Of a stretch of 64,000 nt of DNA, positions 39,164 through 44,219 are shown piece after piece. Numbering within the stretch: the stretch's first letter is position 1; each line of letters begins with the position of its first letter. The stretch covers positions 1,116,001-1,180,000 of the forward strand of contig NZ_CP081496.1 of NCBI RefSeq assembly GCF_019774615.1, in the 5' to 3' direction. A program made the translations under genes and the position numbers. The stretch comes from Streptomyces sp. BHT-5-2. GTDB lineage: Bacteria > Actinomycetota > Actinomycetes > Streptomycetales > Streptomycetaceae. The notes beneath the pieces were generated by a model. That model had not been told where the DNA came from, searched no databases, and saw only the letters and a list, made by a program, of their open reading frames with translations.

Positions 39164-39841
39164 CTAGGGGGTCCAGCGTTCGCCGCGCATGCGGTGGCCC
39201 AGCCCGGACCAGGCGAAGTTCATCAGGGTGGCGGCGGCTTCCCCGGCCGGCGTCTGCTCGCCGTCGCCGGCGGGTCCGGGGGGCGAAGTGCCGTCGGTTT
39301 CGCTGACGTTGGCCCAGTCGGCGAGTGATTCGGCGGCGCCTACGAGGGCGTGCGCCAGGCCCGCGACCTCCCGGTCGGCCAGTTCGCCGGCGCAGCCCGC
39401 CTCCTTCGCGGCGGCGGCGATCAGGGCGGTGACGAAACCGACGATCTCCGCCCGCATCGCCGCCACTTCGGACGCGAACGACTCCCCCTGGGACCGCGCC
39501 TGCTGGTGCAACACCGCCCAGGCGTCGGGGTGTTCGGAGGTGTGCGCGAAGAAGCCGGTCAGGCCGCTCCAGAGTTGGCGGTCGGCGGGGGCGCCCTTCT
39601 CCACGGCCGCGGTGACGGCCGCCACCAGGGCCGCGGACTCCCGCCGGATGACCGCGCTGAAGAGGTCCTCCTTGGAGTTGAGGTAGAGGTAGACCAGCGG
39701 CTTGGAGACGCCGGCCAGTTCGGCGATCTCGTCCATGGAGGCCGCCCGGTATCCGCGCCGTGCGAAGGTCCGCACCGCGGCGTCCATCATCTGCTGCTCC
39801 CGGACCGCCCGCGGCACCCGTTTGCTCTTGGCAGCACCCAC
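39164..39841 (-). CDS. TetR-family transcriptional regulator
   Basis: 225 residues. N-terminal TetR helix-turn-helix (about 10-60): REQQMMDAAVRTFARRGYRAASMDEIAELAGVSKPLVYLYLNSKEDLF. The C-terminal ligand domain (70-225) is not diagnostic. Next to an acyl-CoA ligase, a fatty-acid or acyl-CoA sensor is a reasonable guess. Start: GTG at 39841 with GGAGGGGG about ten bases upstream. A palindrome lies 27 bases upstream, suggesting autorepression. Confidence 0.92.
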   Translation of the reverse strand: MGAAKSKRVPRAVREQQMMDAAVRTFARRGYRAASMDEIAELAGVSKPLVYLYLNSKEDLFSAVIRRESAALVAAVTAAVEKGAPADRQLWSGLTGFFAHTSEHPDAWAVLHQQARSQGESFASEVAAMRAEIVGFVTALIAAAAKEAGCAGELADREVAGLAHALVGAAESLADWANVSETDGTSPPGPAGDGEQTPAGEAAATLMNFAWSGLGHRMRGERWTP

Positions 39842-39891: not shown

Positions 39892-40211
39892 AAGTTTACG
39901 ATCTTCGGCCTCCCGGGCCGGCCGCTTGACGTGATGCGCGCACATGACGGGACGACGCGGATGCGGTTCGTTGCGCCTGGATGGTGGGCACCGCCCACGG
40001 GCGTGCCGACGACGGCGGGATACTGCGCACCGCGGAGCCGGCGCGCAACGAGGTGCCCGCGCCGGTCGAGATCCCGGGGCCGGGGCATGCGCTGCCGCCG
40101 GCTGAGCCGCGCCGGCATGCGGGGGCCGGGCGCACAGCGCGGCGCCCCCGCGGCCTCGTACGGGCCGCGGGGCGCCGCGGTGCGCTGCGGGGGCGGGCCC
40201 CGGTGGTGGCG
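39892..40211. other. Intergenic region between TetR and symporter genes
   Basis: 320 bases upstream of the leftward TetR gene and downstream of the leftward symporter. It holds the TetR promoter at its left end and the symporter terminator at 40139-40178. No gene recognised in the middle, which is GC-rich with several GGGCAC/GTGCCC repeats. Confidence 0.4.
40139..40178 (-). terminator. Terminator of the symporter gene
   Basis: GCGGCGCCCCCGCGGCC pairs with GGCCGCGGGGCGCCGC, 16 pairs with one bulged C and a short loop, 33 bases past the symporter stop. Confidence 0.7.
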
Positions 40212-41582
40212 TCAGGCCGCGGCCGGGGCCGGCTCGCGGTCGGCGGCGGGCTGCACGGCGTCGGCGGTGGTCTCCGTCTCGCCGATGCGGATGCTGGTGG
40301 CGCGGGCGTAGGCGTCGCGGTCCAGGATCTTCTCGCGGGCCGAGACCAGGATCGGGATGACCGCCTGGCCGGCGACGTTGGTGGCGGTGCGCATCATGTC
40401 GAGGATCGGGTCGATGGCCATCAGCAGGCCGACGCCCTCCAGCGGGAGGCCCAGCGTCGAGAGGGTCAGGGTCAGCATGACCGTGGCGCCGGTGAGGCCG
40501 GCGGTGGCGGCGGAGCCGATGACCGAGACGAAGGCGATCAGGACGTAGTCGGCGACGCTCAGGTGGACGCCGAAGATCTGGGCGATGAAGATCGCGGCGA
40601 TCGCCGGGTAGATGGAGGCGCAGCCGTCCATCTTGGTCGTCGAGCCGAACGGCACCGCGAAGGAGGCGTACTCCTTCGGCACGCCGAGGCGCTCGGTGAC
40701 CTTCTGGGTGACCGGCATGGTGCCGACCGAGGAGCGGGAGACGAAGGCCAGCTGGATGGCGGGCCAGGCGCCGCGGAAGAACTGGAGCGGGTTGACCTTG
40801 GCGACGGTGGAGAGCAGGAGCGGGTAGACGCCGAAGAGGACCAGTGCGCAGCCGATGTAGATGTCGACGGTGAAGGTCGCGTACTTGCCGATGAGGTTCC
40901 AGCCGTAGGTGGCGATGGCGTTGCCGATGAGGCCGACGGTGCCGATCGGGGCGAGCCGGATGACCCACCACAGGGCCTTCTGGAGCAGTTCCAGGGCGGC
41001 GCGGCTGATCTTGAGGACCGGCTCGGCCTTCTCGCCGAGCTGGAGCGCGGCGATGCCGGCGACGGCCGCGATGAAGACGATCTGCAGGACGTTGAGCTCG
41101 GTGAACGGCGTGATGACGTCCTTGGGGACGATGCCGGTGAGGAAGTCGATCCAGGAGCCGGTGTGCTGGGGGAGCTTGCCGTCCTTGGGGGTCAGGCCGG
41201 TGCCCGCGCCGGGGTTGCTCAGCAGGCCGATGGCCAGGCCGATGGCCACCGCGACGAGCGAGGTGACCATGAACCACAGCAGGGTGCGGGTGGCCAGCCG
41301 GGCGGCGTTGTTGACCTGCCGCAGGTTGGTGATCGAGACCAGGATCGCGAAGAAGACCAGGGGGGCGACGGCCAGCTTCAGCAGCTGGACGAAGAGGTCG
41401 CCGATGTGCTCCAGGGTGGAGCCGAGCCAGCCGACGTCACCGCTCTTGGCGACCCAGCCGAGCAGCACGCCGAGGACGAGGCCGGCCAGGATCTGCACCC
41501 AGAACGGGATCTTGGGTATTCGGGAGGACTTCGGGGACTTCGGCGCCGTCGCGGGCGCGGGGGTCTGGGCGGGCGTGGACAA
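40212..41582 (-). CDS. DAACS-family sodium:dicarboxylate/amino-acid symporter (possible cystine importer)
   Basis: 456 residues, about eight helices plus two re-entrant hairpins. Family signatures: LFVQLLKLAVAPLVFFAILVSI, the SRSSVGTMPV re-entrant loop, and the cation/substrate motif as KMDGCASIYPA where glutamate and C4-dicarboxylate members usually have NMDGT. The family covers glutamate, C4-dicarboxylate and cystine (TcyP) carriers; the cysteine-rich leader ORF upstream points to cystine, which is inference. Start: TTG at 41582 preferred, since GGAG lies eight bases upstream; the GTG at 41591 would leave only one base between. A terminator follows. Confidence 0.85.
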   Translation of the reverse strand: MSTPAQTPAPATAPKSPKSSRIPKIPFWVQILAGLVLGVLLGWVAKSGDVGWLGSTLEHIGDLFVQLLKLAVAPLVFFAILVSITNLRQVNNAARLATRTLLWFMVTSLVAVAIGLAIGLLSNPGAGTGLTPKDGKLPQHTGSWIDFLTGIVPKDVITPFTELNVLQIVFIAAVAGIAALQLGEKAEPVLKISRAALELLQKALWWVIRLAPIGTVGLIGNAIATYGWNLIGKYATFTVDIYIGCALVLFGVYPLLLSTVAKVNPLQFFRGAWPAIQLAFVSRSSVGTMPVTQKVTERLGVPKEYASFAVPFGSTTKMDGCASIYPAIAAIFIAQIFGVHLSVADYVLIAFVSVIGSAATAGLTGATVMLTLTLSTLGLPLEGVGLLMAIDPILDMMRTATNVAGQAVIPILVSAREKILDRDAYARATSIRIGETETTADAVQPAADREPAPAAA

Positions 41583-41696
41583 CGGACACACTCCGGGAAC
41601 GGTGAAGGCGTGGGGACGCGGGGCGTCGGGGACGGCGTGACAGGGCGCCAGGAGGTCCGTACGTACAGGCAGGATCTCCGGCCGCTGGGGGACGTG
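41583..41696 (-). promoter_or_regulatory. Leader mRNA between Cys-rich peptide and symporter
   Basis: 114 bases. On the minus strand GGAGATCC (41679-41672) can pair with GGACCTCC (41658-41651), one mismatch, around a TGTACGTAC loop; this hairpin starts 18 bases after the peptide stop and could be part of an attenuator or sequester RNA near it. The ribosome site GGAG for the symporter is at 41591-41594. Confidence 0.35.
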
Positions 41697-41801
41697 TCAG
41701 CGGCGGCAACAGGCCGCGGACATACAGCGGCAAAGATCGACGTGCAGGCGCACCACGAGCGGGACGCTCATGGGGGTCGAGGGCGCAGCTGCGGTCTTCA
41801 T
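41697..41801 (-). CDS. Cysteine-rich regulatory leader peptide
   Basis: A short ORF of 34 residues from ATG 41801 (MKTAAAPSTPMSVPL...) or 24 from ATG 41771. Its end, HVDLCRCMSAACCRR, has four Cys in nine residues and matches the actinobacterial leader-peptide pattern (R)RHxDLxRxxSAxC found before sulfur and cysteine genes. In mycobacteria, leaderless poly-Cys short ORFs of this kind attenuate downstream genes according to cysteinyl-tRNA supply. A GTTAAC -10-like box at 41811-41816 would start RNA within a few bases of the 41801 ATG, so the longer form could be leaderless. Neither ATG has a ribosome site. Confidence 0.65.
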   Translation of the reverse strand: MKTAAAPSTPMSVPLVVRLHVDLCRCMSAACCRR

Positions 41802-41832
41802 GACATGCACGTTAACACTTGAACTTTGAGGA

Positions 41833-41853
41833 ACCCAAAGAAAATCTTTGGGT
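41833..41853. promoter_or_regulatory. Perfect palindrome over the leader promoter
   Basis: ACCCAAAGA and TCTTTGGGT arms, nine perfect pairs around AAA. The arm nearer the leader ORF contains TTGGGT, placed 16 bases from the GTTAAC -10-like box, so a bound protein would cover the -35. Candidate operator for an unknown repressor. Confidence 0.6.
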
Positions 41854-41905
41854 AGGGGACAGGGCCGGCGAACCGCCATGGAAGCGGCGCGGGCGCACAA
41901 AAAGG

Positions 41906-41943
41906 CGCCCGGTCCGGGGAGTTGGGACTCCGCGGACCGGGCG
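41906..41943 (-). terminator. Intrinsic terminator of the DUF4229 gene
   Basis: CGCCCGGTCCG pairs with CGGACCGGGCG, with GGAGT/ACTCC inside; on the minus strand it is followed by CCTTTTTGTG. Well-formed, with a T-run. Confidence 0.85.
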
Positions 41944-42060
41944 TCGGTCGAGGTGGGGGTGCGGGCGGCGCGTCGACGTGACGCGTCTTACAGCCCTGGG
42001 AACGGGCGGAAGCAGACCAGAAGCGGGCGGCGGACCCCGGAGGGGCGCCGGCCGGGGTCT

Positions 42061-42348
42061 CTAGAGCCCGTCCTCCATGCGCTGGTTGGCGGCCAGGCGC
42101 TCCTTCTGGCGGTCCACCTTGGCCACGATCTGCTCGGACATCGCGTCCCGCTGCTTGCGCAGCAGTACGAAGCTGAGCGGCGCGGAGATGACGATGGCGA
42201 GGAGCAGCATCCAGACGGTGTTGGAGTCGCCGACGCCGAGCGGGATGATCCGGAAGTACGCCAGCACCCACACCACGGCGAAGCAGACGGCGAACAGGCC
42301 GATGCGAAGGGCGGTGTAGCGGAGCGAGGCGAACTTGGGGCTACTCAC
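42061..42348 (-). CDS. DUF4229 small membrane protein
   Basis: 95 residues, two transmembrane helices (LRIGLFAVCFAVVWVLAYF and TVWMLLLAIVISAPLSFVLL) followed by a charged cytosolic helix (RKQRDAMSEQIVAKVDRQKERLAANQRMEDGL). The pattern matches the DUF4229 family of actinobacteria, function unknown. Start: GTG at 42348 with AGAAGG upstream. In other actinobacteria it is found near menaquinone genes; here the futalosine genes lie just to the right, separated by a GNAT gene. Confidence 0.75.
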   Translation of the reverse strand: MSSPKFASLRYTALRIGLFAVCFAVVWVLAYFRIIPLGVGDSNTVWMLLLAIVISAPLSFVLLRKQRDAMSEQIVAKVDRQKERLAANQRMEDGL

Positions 42349-42442
42349 GGTCGGGACCTTCTTCTCAACGGCAACCGAAAGGGTCCCGTCCAGTCAAGCA
42401 CAGGAGGCTGGGCGATCTTCCGGGCCCCCGGCACGGGGGGCG

Positions 42443-42967
42443 TCAGGCCAGGTCCAGCCACATGGTGATGTCGTCGCGGAAGTCGTCGTCGGCGAGCTTG
42501 ATCGCGCGGGGGGCGCGGCCGATCTCGTGGTAGCCGCAGCTCTCGTAGAAGCGGTGCAGGCCGGTGCCGCCGCGGCAGGTGAGGCGGAGGCCGATGATGC
42601 CGTCGAGGGAGCGGGCGGCACCGGCGACCGCGGCCATCAGCTCCCGGCCGACGCCGCGGCCCTGGAGGGCGGGGTGGACCATGACCGTGTAGACCCACAG
42701 CCAGTGGGTGTACATACGGTGCCGGTTGAGGGTGAGGAACGCGGTGGCCACGATCCGGCCGTCGGCGTCCCGGCCGACGAGCAGCCGCTCGCGGCCCTCG
42801 GCGAGCGCCGCGAGATGGCGGACGAGGGCGGGGCGGATGTCCTCGGAGGTCACGGGCGGGACGAAGCCGACCGCGCCGCCCGCGTTGGAGACGTCCACCC
42901 ACAACGCGCAGATCCCGTCGCGGACTTCCGGGGTGACGGCAGGGTCCAGCTCGAAGCGCGCGCTCAT
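42443..42967 (-). CDS. GNAT-family N-acetyltransferase
   Basis: 174 residues. Acetyl-CoA pyrophosphate-binding signature VHPALQGRGVGRELMAAVAG (motif A, Q/RxxGxG/A) near residues 97-116, with the upstream beta strand THWLWVYTVMV and motif B HRFYESCGYHEIGR. Substrate not deducible. ATG start at 42967. Same strand as mqnE but 40 bases downstream of its stop, so it may be co-transcribed. Confidence 0.9.
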   Translation of the reverse strand: MSARFELDPAVTPEVRDGICALWVDVSNAGGAVGFVPPVTSEDIRPALVRHLAALAEGRERLLVGRDADGRIVATAFLTLNRHRMYTHWLWVYTVMVHPALQGRGVGRELMAAVAGAARSLDGIIGLRLTCRGGTGLHRFYESCGYHEIGRAPRAIKLADDDFRDDITMWLDLA

Positions 42968-43007
42968 GGAGCGGACCCTACCGGGGCCCCCGGGGGCGGG
43001 GTCGTCG

Positions 43008-44183
43008 TCAGATCCGCATCGGCTGCGGGGACTCGCGGCGCTCGGAGTCCGGGCCGGGGTACTCGCGGATGTTCTCGTAGCGGGTGTTGCGCTCGACGGG
43101 GCGGAAGCCGGCGTCGCGGATCAGCTCCAGCAGGTCGTCGCGGGTGAGCTTGTTCGGCGTGCCGTAGTTGTCGGCGTCGTGCGTGATCTTGTACTCGACG
43201 ACCGAGCCGTCCATGTCGTCGGCGCCGTGCTGGAGGGCCAGCTGAGCGGTCTGCACGCCGTGCATCACCCAGAACACCTTGACGTGCGGGATGTTGTCGA
43301 AGAGCAGCCGGGAGACCGCGAAGGTCTTCAGGGCCTCGGCGCCGGTGGCCATCGTGGTCCGCGCCTGGAGCTTGTTGCGGACCTTGCCGTCCTGCATGTC
43401 CACGAAGTCGTGCTGGTAGCGCAGCGGGATGAAGACCTGGAAGCCGCCGGTCTCGTCCTGGAGCTCGCGCAGCCGCAGGACGTGGTCGACGCGGTGGCGG
43501 GGCTCCTCGATGTGCCCGTAGAGCATGGTGCAGGGCGTCTTGAGGCCCTTCTCGTGGGCGAGGCGGTGGATCCGCGACCAGTCTTCCCAGTGGGTGCGGT
43601 GGTCGACGATGTGCTGCCGGACCTCCCAGTCGAAGATCTCGGCGCCGCCGCCGGTCAGCGACTCCAGGCCGGCGTCGATCAGCTCGTCGAGGATCTCGGA
43701 GGCGGACAGGCCGGAGATGGTCTCGAAGTGGTGGATCTCGGTGGCGGTGAACGCCTTGAGCGAGACGTTCGGCAGCGCCTTCTTCAACTCCCGCAGCGAG
43801 CGCGGGTAGTAGCGCCACGGCAGGGTCGGGTGGAGGCCGTTGACGATGTGCAGCTCGGTGAGGTTGTCGTTCTCCATCGCCTTGGCGAGGCGGACGGCCT
43901 CCTCGATGCGCATGGTGTACGCGTCCTTCTCGCCCGGCTTGCGCTGGAACGAGCAGTACGCGCAGGACGCGGTGCACACGTTCGTCATGTTGAGGTGGCG
44001 GTTGACGTTGAAGTGGACGGCGTCGCCGTTCTTCCGCGTGCGGACCTCGTGGGCGAGGCCGCCCAGCCAGGCCAGGTCGTCGGACTCGTAGAGGGCGATT
44101 CCGTCCTCGCGGGTCAGCCGTTCGCCGGCGTGGACCTTCGCCTCCAGCTCGCGCTTGAGGCCGGCATCCATCGACGCAGCCAT
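43008..44183 (-). CDS. mqnE: Aminodeoxyfutalosine synthase (radical SAM)
   Basis: Joins 3-enolpyruvylbenzoate (from MqnA) to S-adenosylmethionine's adenosyl group to give aminofutalosine. 391 residues. Radical-SAM motif C70-TAS-C74-AY-C77; family segments VHFNVNRHLNMTNVC, HIVNGLHPTLPWRYYP, GLESLTGGGAEIFDWEVRQ and TPCTMLYGHIEEPRHRVDH are present. Start: ATG at 44183, with GGGAGG seven bases upstream; the ATG at 44201 is in frame but lies before that ribosome site. A parS element lies 36 bases upstream of the start. Confidence 0.95.
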   Translation of the reverse strand: MAASMDAGLKRELEAKVHAGERLTREDGIALYESDDLAWLGGLAHEVRTRKNGDAVHFNVNRHLNMTNVCTASCAYCSFQRKPGEKDAYTMRIEEAVRLAKAMENDNLTELHIVNGLHPTLPWRYYPRSLRELKKALPNVSLKAFTATEIHHFETISGLSASEILDELIDAGLESLTGGGAEIFDWEVRQHIVDHRTHWEDWSRIHRLAHEKGLKTPCTMLYGHIEEPRHRVDHVLRLRELQDETGGFQVFIPLRYQHDFVDMQDGKVRNKLQARTTMATGAEALKTFAVSRLLFDNIPHVKVFWVMHGVQTAQLALQHGADDMDGSVVEYKITHDADNYGTPNKLTRDDLLELIRDAGFRPVERNTRYENIREYPGPDSERRESPQPMRI

Positions 44184-44219
44184 CGGGTCGCCTCCCACCA
44201 TCTCTGTCTGTCACCGGCC

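What the first reader, a model, noticed from the sequence alone, without database searches (positions are those of the whole stretch)
41582..41853. Cysteine-rich leader ORF and palindromic operator upstream of a DAACS symporter
Seen: an ORF ending HVDLCRCMSAACCRR (four Cys in nine residues), a -10-like GTTAAC placing the start of RNA almost at its ATG, a perfect 9-bp palindrome over the -35, and a GGAGATCC/GGACCTCC hairpin before the symporter start. Known: leaderless poly-Cys short ORFs attenuate cysteine genes in mycobacteria; leader peptides with RxHxDLxRxxSAxC are found before sulfur genes in actinobacteria; DAACS includes the cystine carrier TcyP. Inference: this symporter is a cystine importer controlled by cysteinyl-tRNA supply, and by a separate repressor acting at the palindrome. 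The symporter's MDGC in place of NMDGT also hints at a different substrate.
Basis: partly seen in the sequence, partly recalled or inferred. Interest (0 to 1): 0.75.

Follow-up and report, generated by a model that had tools for sequence, protein, structure and literature searches.

The report
Cysteine-sensing leader before predicted cystine importer
In Streptomyces a short cysteine-rich reading frame, with a conserved promoter of its own, stands in front of a membrane transporter gene; it likely raises the transporter when cysteine runs short, and the transporter is predicted to import cystine or cysteine, so this would be a two-layer control of sulfur uptake that nobody has tested here.

Summary
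The 34-codon ORF (41801-41697, minus strand) precedes the symporter in 121 of 126 Streptomyces-group loci. RLHVDL has dN/dS 0.04. The -10 TAACGT ends 7 nt before its ATG, so RNA likely starts there; in three loci that lost the ORF the symporter's ATG takes that place. The palindrome is part of CAAAG-N5-CTTTG-N7-CAAAG: all 79 exact sites in 150 Streptomyces genomes lie just upstream of this symporter. Leader-like ORFs precede the orthologue in 27 of 33 loci of other genera. In the window, Cys codons can pair with a downstream element; modelling a ribosome there frees the Shine-Dalgarno from a rival helix, though mean accessibility hardly changes. The symporter keeps MDGCA..YP in 139 of 139, like E. 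coli TcyP, but lies outside the TcyP clade. One leader cysteine is UGU in every leader checked against 11% background, unexplained. Cysteine response, cystine transport and the palindrome's regulator are inferred. The leader is a known kind; target, switch, operator and UGU look new.

The parts
41824..41850 (-). CAAAG-N5-CTTTG-N7-CAAAG, likely operator: half-sites 41850-41846, 41840-41836, 41828-41824
   Evidence: 104 of 122 promoters; once per genome in 79 of 150 genomes, always upstream of the symporter
41833..41853 (-). perfect 9-bp palindrome that contains the first two half-sites
   Evidence: sequence; full 9-bp form in close relatives only
41833..41838 (-). -35 hexamer TTGGGT
   Evidence: TTG-type hexamer 18 nt before the -10 in most loci; not mapped
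41809..41814 (-). -10 hexamer TAACGT (TAnnnT)
   Evidence: TAACGT in 78 of 126 loci, other TAnnnT forms in 44
41697..41801 (-). leader ORF, 34 codons, predicted to be translated from a leaderless RNA
41709..41711 (-). UGU codon of the conserved SAxC cysteine (Cys14 of the RLHVDL block)
   Evidence: UGU in 57 of 57 unique blocks
41725..41738 (-). region 1, GAUCUUUGCCGCUG, Asp-Leu-Cys-Arg-Cys codons
   Evidence: pairs with region 2 in the free fold; 98.7% of cells paired in 22 sequences
41673..41687 (-). region 2, CAGCGGC-C-GGAGAUC
41648..41660 (-). region 3, ACGGACCUCCUGG, predicted to mask the Shine-Dalgarno or to pair with region 2
41582..41594 (-). region 4, Shine-Dalgarno GGAG (41594-41591) and spacer up to the TTG start
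40212..41582 (-). DAACS (SDF) symporter, TTG start
   Evidence: PF00375 355.8 bits; MDGCASIYPA

Best explanation
In Streptomyces this symporter gene is preceded by a conserved promoter and a conserved cysteine-rich short ORF that likely senses cysteinyl-tRNA: when cysteine is short, a ribosome would stall on its Cys codons, which would uncover the symporter's Shine-Dalgarno and raise a predicted cystine or cysteine importer. Shown by sequence: the ORF and its purifying selection, the fixed 7-nt spacing from -10 to start codon, the triple CAAAG element over the -35, and the existence of alternative helices. Inferred: with enough cysteine, region 1 (the first Cys codons) pairs with region 2, and region 3 then pairs with and masks the Shine-Dalgarno; a ribosome held on the first Cys codons covers region 1, region 2 takes region 3, and the symporter can be translated. 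Inferred: a separate, unidentified DNA-binding protein at the CAAAG element represses transcription. Inferred: the cargo is cystine or cysteine.
For: Leader motif in 121 of 126 Streptomyces-group loci and leader-like ORFs in 27 of 33 loci of other genera. RLHVDL dN/dS 0.039. In-frame start 7 nt after the -10 in 112 of 122 promoters; the symporter's own ATG at that place where the leader is lost. RNA: 2:3 pairing rises in 20 of 24 and 3:4 falls in 17 of 24 sequences of the window's clade when a ribosome is modelled on the first Cys codon; cost of opening the start site falls by over 1 kcal/mol in 11, rises in 1. Hairpin covariation in a second clade, 14 double-changed cells, 0 of 500 shuffles. 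Cys codons pair with a downstream element in 96.4% of cells there, and in a third clade the pairing partner moves to the terminal Cys cluster. Other leaders of the family in the same genome stand before sulfur genes. Symporter shares GCA..YPA and one extra residue with TcyP.
Against: No expression, uptake or start-site data. Mean Shine-Dalgarno accessibility hardly changes (0.10 to 0.12 in the window's clade). Leader-spacer duplex energies are not special (12 of 113 with z below -2); the longest gapless pairing beats shuffles at p <= 0.05 in 46 of 78, 1 of 24 and 0 of 11 sequences of the three clades. A ribosome on the last Cys codon does not flip the fold, so the invariant UGU is not explained. 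Helix 3:4 never varies, so it is not tested by covariation. Some clades lack the pairing element.
Confidence: 0.58

Rival explanations
1. The leader governs Rho-dependent termination rather than translation: after release at the stop codon Rho would load on the C-rich spacer and stop transcription, and a ribosome stalled near the end of the ORF would shield it.
For: Spacer between leader stop and Shine-Dalgarno has C above G in 112 of 112 unique sequences, C/G 1.93, against 1.07 upstream of the promoter. No intrinsic terminator. Seliverstov et al. proposed Rho for mycobacterial cys leaders (PMC1262725, passages). It would give the last Cys codons, UGU among them, a part to play.
Against: Covarying hairpins and the Shine-Dalgarno-masking helix are not needed for it. 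C-richness is only a hint of a Rho site.
Confidence: 0.25
2. The leader is a nascent-chain arrest peptide: RxHVDL in the exit tunnel would sense cysteine or another sulfur metabolite, the Cys codons being secondary.
For: RLHVDL is the most constrained part, dN/dS 0.039 against 0.404 for the Cys-bearing part, and is shared by leaders before different genes, some with a single Cys.
Against: Cys at position 14 is as constant as RLHVDL (57 of 57), and Streptomyces leaders here keep two to five Cys. No stalling data.
Confidence: 0.15
3. The symporter carries acidic amino acids or C4-dicarboxylates; the leader merely ties it to cysteine supply.
For: DctA and GltP models score 215 and 174 bits and no cystine model appeared; best solved relatives are aspartate transporters; the RTATN arginine, which binds the side-chain carboxylate in GltPh (recalled), is kept.
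Against: All four models are far below their cut-offs; DctA, GltP and Streptomyces paralogues form a group that excludes it (100/99); GCA..YPA with one extra residue is shared only with TcyP among the four E. coli proteins aligned.
Confidence: 0.3
4. The ORF only delivers ribosomes from a leaderless RNA to the symporter and senses nothing.
For: Leaderless architecture; lineages without the ORF survive.
Against: Peptide-level selection, fixed Cys14 and its fixed UGU codon need more than ribosome delivery.
Confidence: 0.07

Closest known systems
NCBIfam NF042934 cis_reg_atten, putative leader peptide
   Same: RxHVDLxRxxSAxC motif; orthologous symporter leaders of other genera pass the cut-off; all 19 symporter leaders scanned match at E <= 0.01
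   Different: The window's leader scores 20.6 against a cut-off of 27; extra Cys at positions 7, 9 and 15; a DAACS symporter as target
Cys-rich leaderless ORFs of mycobacteria (NCBIfam Ms4527A and Ms5788A; Canestrari et al. 2020, title only seen; PMC4633059 and PMC9094748, passages)
   Same: Leaderless, Cys codons near the stop codon, before sulfur genes; weak profile matches
   Different: Below those models' cut-offs (12.5 against 45); here a transporter target, a palindromic element over the -35 and pairing of the Cys codons with the spacer
uORFC-8-2 before cysS in Rhodobacterales (PMC8632094, passages)
   Same: Tandem Cys codons in a short ORF, Cys codons inside a stem
   Different: That one ends in an intrinsic terminator and mostly uses UGC; here no terminator and UGU at one fixed place
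E. coli TcyP (YdjN), DAACS cystine symporter
   Same: DAACS family, GCA..YPA with one extra residue, 32% identity
   Different: Separate clade; MDG in place of QNG

Membership tests
NF042934 putative leader peptide | score at or above the curated cut-off of 27 bits | tested here: not met
   window leader 20.6 bits, 17.7 in the genome search; leaders of the orthologue in other genera 32.2, 36.6, 38.7 and 28.8, one 26.1
NF042934 putative leader peptide | RxHVDLxRxxSAxC motif near the end of a short ORF | tested here: met
Mycobacterial Cys-rich attenuator ORFs (Ms4527A) | score at or above the curated cut-off of 45 bits | tested here: not met
   12.5 bits
Mycobacterial Cys-rich attenuator ORFs (Ms4527A) | translated from a leaderless RNA | tested here: inconclusive
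   -10 to start codon 7 nt in 112 of 122 promoters; no start-site mapping
Mycobacterial Cys-rich attenuator ORFs (Ms4527A) | downstream expression answers to cysteine | not testable with these tools
   needs a reporter
Classical transcription attenuator | GC-rich hairpin followed by a U-run | tested here: not met
   none found in 41560-41960
Rfam RNA element | match to a described family | tested here: not met
   no match in 40000-43000 up to E 1, none in L003, L016, L040 at gathering scores
DAACS (Pfam SDF) | PF00375 above gathering score | tested here: met
   355.8 bits against 27.9
TcyP cystine symporters | GCA..YPA with one extra residue at the NMDGT site | tested here: met
TcyP cystine symporters | placement inside the TcyP clade | tested here: not met
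   own clade 97/99 beside TcyP 100/99; long branches, separating branch 87/59
TcyP cystine symporters | transports cystine | not testable with these tools
   needs uptake assay

The most novel reading that the evidence does not exclude
A cysteine sensor that reads codon identity: across this actinobacterial leader family one cysteine codon is fixed as the rare, wobble-read UGU while its neighbour in the same peptide is UGC, so the decoding speed of UGU by tRNA-Cys, together with the RxHVDL nascent chain, sets the switch. At this symporter it is joined to a single-target operator of three CAAAG half-sites, giving cystine import two independent locks.
Probability: 0.3. Interest if true: 0.78.

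Novelty: new variant of a known kind. Interest (0 to 1): 0.6.

Why it matters
If true, it gives Streptomyces a cystine or cysteine importer and shows how it is governed; no report of this symporter, its leader or its operator appeared in the paper searches made here (open-licence papers only). It makes a cysteine attenuator testable outside mycobacteria, with natural controls: lineages that lost the ORF but kept promoter and operator. The fixed UGU poses a sharp question: why would genomes that prefer UGC keep UGU at one place in one peptide family? The single-site operator is a clean bait for its regulator.

Tried and rejected
Regulon search with the palindrome: the triple element has one site in the window's genome (the reversed control with the same loose gaps gave 6), and a relaxed dyad with one mismatch gave three other places (control 1 on each strand), not followed beyond a glance at L185. 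So this did not name a regulator. Intrinsic terminator and Rfam element: none. Duplex-energy test of leader against spacer: inconclusive, high G+C swamps it. Mean Shine-Dalgarno accessibility: no clear change. The helix-specific probabilities and opening cost were computed after that first measure failed, so they weigh less than a planned test. DctA or GltP membership: rejected by score and tree. The GTG 41591 start of the ORF list: rejected, since GGAG, spacer and start are conserved at TTG 41582. No structure was predicted: the fold is not in doubt and would not settle the cargo.

Rows and choices behind the counts: L001, L113 and L123 are copies of the window locus and were left out. The 126 loci are the window (L082), 80 named (L002-L081) and 45 unnamed of the same genus (L083-L111, L136-L151); species overlap between named and unnamed was not removed, and two named ones bear other names (L059 Streptomycetaceae bacterium, L073 Streptosporangium nondiastaticum). 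RNA tests used 113 unique leader-to-start sequences; alignments A1 and A2 hold 22 of 24 and 42 of 78 sequences of two clades, chosen by hand; the third clade (11) was not aligned. Leaders outside the genus were recognised by eye in translations. One search examined 39 loci, 19 matched the motif expression; its printed tally was 15 UGU and 3 UGC because in three leaders it took an earlier Cys (position 12), while position 14 is UGU in all 19 rows.

Full report
What is there. On the minus strand, 219 nt before a DAACS symporter (TTG 41582 to 40212), begins a 34-codon ORF, 41801-41697, ending RLHVDLCRCMSAACCRR. Its promoter reads TTGGGT-N18-TAACGT, and 7 nt separate the -10 from the ATG. S. lividans start-site mapping gives TAnnnT as -10, 5-7 nt to the start in 88.7% of cases, and 17% leaderless transcripts (PMC8079986, passages). 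The RNA therefore likely begins at the ATG. A perfect 9-bp palindrome covers the -35.

Conservation in Streptomyces. Loci of the orthologous symporter came from named genomes and unnamed ones. Of 150 same-genus genomes, 102 have the orthologue. In 126 loci the leader motif is found in 121 and the promoter string in 122; of those 122, 112 have an in-frame start codon 7 nt after the -10 (104 ATG, 8 GTG) and 5 have GTG at 6 nt. In 57 unique 14-codon blocks RLHVDL has dN/dS 0.039, the following eight codons 0.404; codons 2-8 at the N-terminus have 0.713. This is a translated peptide under selection. Exceptions inform: L045, L066 and L075 have lost the ORF, and the symporter's own ATG now stands 7 nt after the same -10. 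L036 has a leader broken after DLC and L096 has lost HVDL but is still Cys-rich; L140 lacks the leader; L025 and L151 do not match the promoter string, and L046 is cut by its contig end.

Conservation beyond Streptomyces. Leader-like ORFs stand before the orthologue in 12 of 13 (not L163) and 15 of 20 (not L169, L180, L181, L182, L184) loci of other genera and families, read by eye from translations. The NCBIfam model NF042934 finds such a leader above its cut-off just upstream of the symporter in two genomes of one other genus (G188, G205). All 19 symporter leaders scanned match it at E <= 0.01. The window's leader scores 20.6 against a cut-off of 27, so annotation by that model would pass it over.

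Company. In the window's genome the same model hits seven places above cut-off, with the window's leader below it. The genes after eight other leaders (L114-L120 and L122; L121 had no suitable ORF) are cysteine dioxygenase with a rhodanese, a flavin reductase, a sulfite or nitrite reductase, a ThiS protein with a PALP enzyme (CysO and CysM by recall), a rhodanese, an ABC permease, a GST-like protein and an arylsulfotransferase. Most are sulfur genes; the permease, the flavin reductase and the GST-like protein are not so by domain alone.

The palindrome. Aligned, it is CAAAG-N5-CTTTG-N7-CAAAG in 104 of 122 promoters, always with these spacings when complete. In 150 Streptomyces genomes the exact element occurs 79 times, once in each of 79 genomes, reversed control 0. 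All 79 lie 19-370 nt upstream of the symporter hit on its strand; 79 of the 102 genomes with the symporter have it, none of the 48 without. It is kept where the leader is lost. It overlaps the -35 and the spacer, so a repressor is likely; none was identified. A TetR gene downstream lies within the fetched flank in 52 of 80 named loci and is only a candidate.

RNA. In the window's free minimum-energy fold GAUCUUUGCCGCUG (Asp-Leu-Cys-Arg-Cys codons) pairs with CAGCGGC-C-GGAGAUC, and ACGGACCUCC pairs with GGAG and GUCCGU around the symporter's start; with a ribosome masked onto the first Cys codon, the GGAGAUCC stretch pairs with GGACCUCC instead. Over 24 sequences of this clade, expected pairs go from 11.9 to 0 (1:2, by construction of the mask), 0.85 to 5.3 (2:3) and 3.6 to 0.2 (3:4); 2:3 gains in 20, 3:4 falls in 17; the cost of opening the start site falls by more than 1 kcal/mol in 11 and rises by that much in 1. 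Alignment counts: 1:2 98.7% paired with one double change, 57 of 500 shuffles as high; 3:4 98.7% paired but invariant. In a larger clade (42 sequences aligned) the hairpin after the leader covaries: 93.2% paired, 14 double-changed cells, 0 of 500 shuffles as high; the Cys codons pair with CAUGCAGCGGCG in 96.4% of cells, without double changes. In a third clade the pairing partner moves to the terminal Cys cluster, CUGUUGCUGU with ACAGCAGCGG. Against: mean Shine-Dalgarno accessibility hardly moves, energy and pairing tests are mixed, a ribosome on the last Cys codon does not flip the fold, and some clades lack the pairing element.

Rival at the RNA level. There is no intrinsic terminator, and the spacer has C above G in 112 of 112 unique sequences, as a Rho site would. 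I commit to translation control for the window's clade and hold Rho as the main rival; both would use the Cys codons.

The symporter. SDF family, 355.8 bits. MDGCA[AS][IV]YP[AS] in 139 of 139 orthologues. E. coli TcyP reads NGCAGLYPA at this place, with the same extra residue that GltP, DctA and SstT lack. In the tree it is a lineage of its own, apart from DctA, GltP and Streptomyces paralogues (100/99) and not inside TcyP; SstT and TcyP sit on long branches. TcyP/YdjN is a cystine symporter (PMC4383340, PMC8015009, abstract starts in a search listing). Cystine or cysteine is the likeliest cargo (about 0.6), unproven.

UGU. The SAxC cysteine is UGU in 57 of 57 unique blocks while Cys7 is UGC in 54 of 57; UGU in 27 of 27 leaders outside Streptomyces, where Cys7, if present, is UGC in 14 of 14; and UGU at that position in all 19 leaders of the family matched among 39 loci examined. 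In 26 long ORFs of the window UGU is 12 of 105 Cys codons. Shared descent makes these counts dependent, but leaders before different genes argue for selection on the codon. One tRNA-Cys reads both codons (recalled, not checked in this genome), so selective charging would not explain it; slow wobble decoding might. The switch as modelled depends on Cys7 and Cys9, so it does not explain UGU at 14.

Known or new. Cys-codon leaders are known in mycobacteria (PMC4633059 and PMC9094748, passages; Canestrari et al. 2020, title in reference lists, paper not held) and were proposed by Seliverstov et al. 2005 for Mycobacterium, Propionibacterium and Bifidobacterium (PMC1262725, passages). The S. lividans survey lists eight attenuator leaders, none for cysteine by its naming (PMC8079986, passages). 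The paper searches listed no report of this symporter, operator or UGU rule; subscription papers are not covered. I file it as a new variant of a known kind.

Noticed in passing
window 41709-41711; L114-L122, L152-L184, L188-L217: The conserved SAxC cysteine of this leader family is UGU in every leader checked, although UGC is the preferred codon and Cys7 of the same peptide is UGC.
   Followed up: partly
L045, L066, L075 upstream of the symporter; G008 and G018 perhaps alike: Natural deletions of the leader that leave promoter and operator and put the symporter's own ATG 7 nt after the -10; in G008 and G018 the operator lies only 56 and 19 nt before the symporter hit, sequence not examined.
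   Followed up: partly
L165, L166, L171, L173, L175, L177, L178 upstream of the leader: Outside Streptomyces the leader has a different upstream sequence, GGAAT or GGAATA with, in several, TATTnT 8 nt before a GTG start; a promoter of another type is possible.
   Followed up: no
window 39164-39841: TetR-family regulator (PF00440) on the same strand downstream of the symporter, near it in 52 of 80 named loci; a candidate for the CAAAG element.
   Followed up: partly
window 42061-44201: DUF4229 protein, GNAT acetyltransferase and radical-SAM (CofH/MqnC C-terminal) genes upstream on the same strand; DUF4229 in 77, the radical-SAM gene in 73 of 80 named loci.
   Followed up: no
genus sample: 48 of 150 Streptomyces genomes lack the symporter; none of them has the CAAAG element.
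   Followed up: no
L052 upstream of the leader: Inverted copy of the leader region next to an N, which looks like an assembly join rather than biology.
   Followed up: no
spacer 41696-41595 and its counterparts: C above G in 112 of 112 unique spacers, twice as much C as G on average, as in Rho loading sites.
   Followed up: partly
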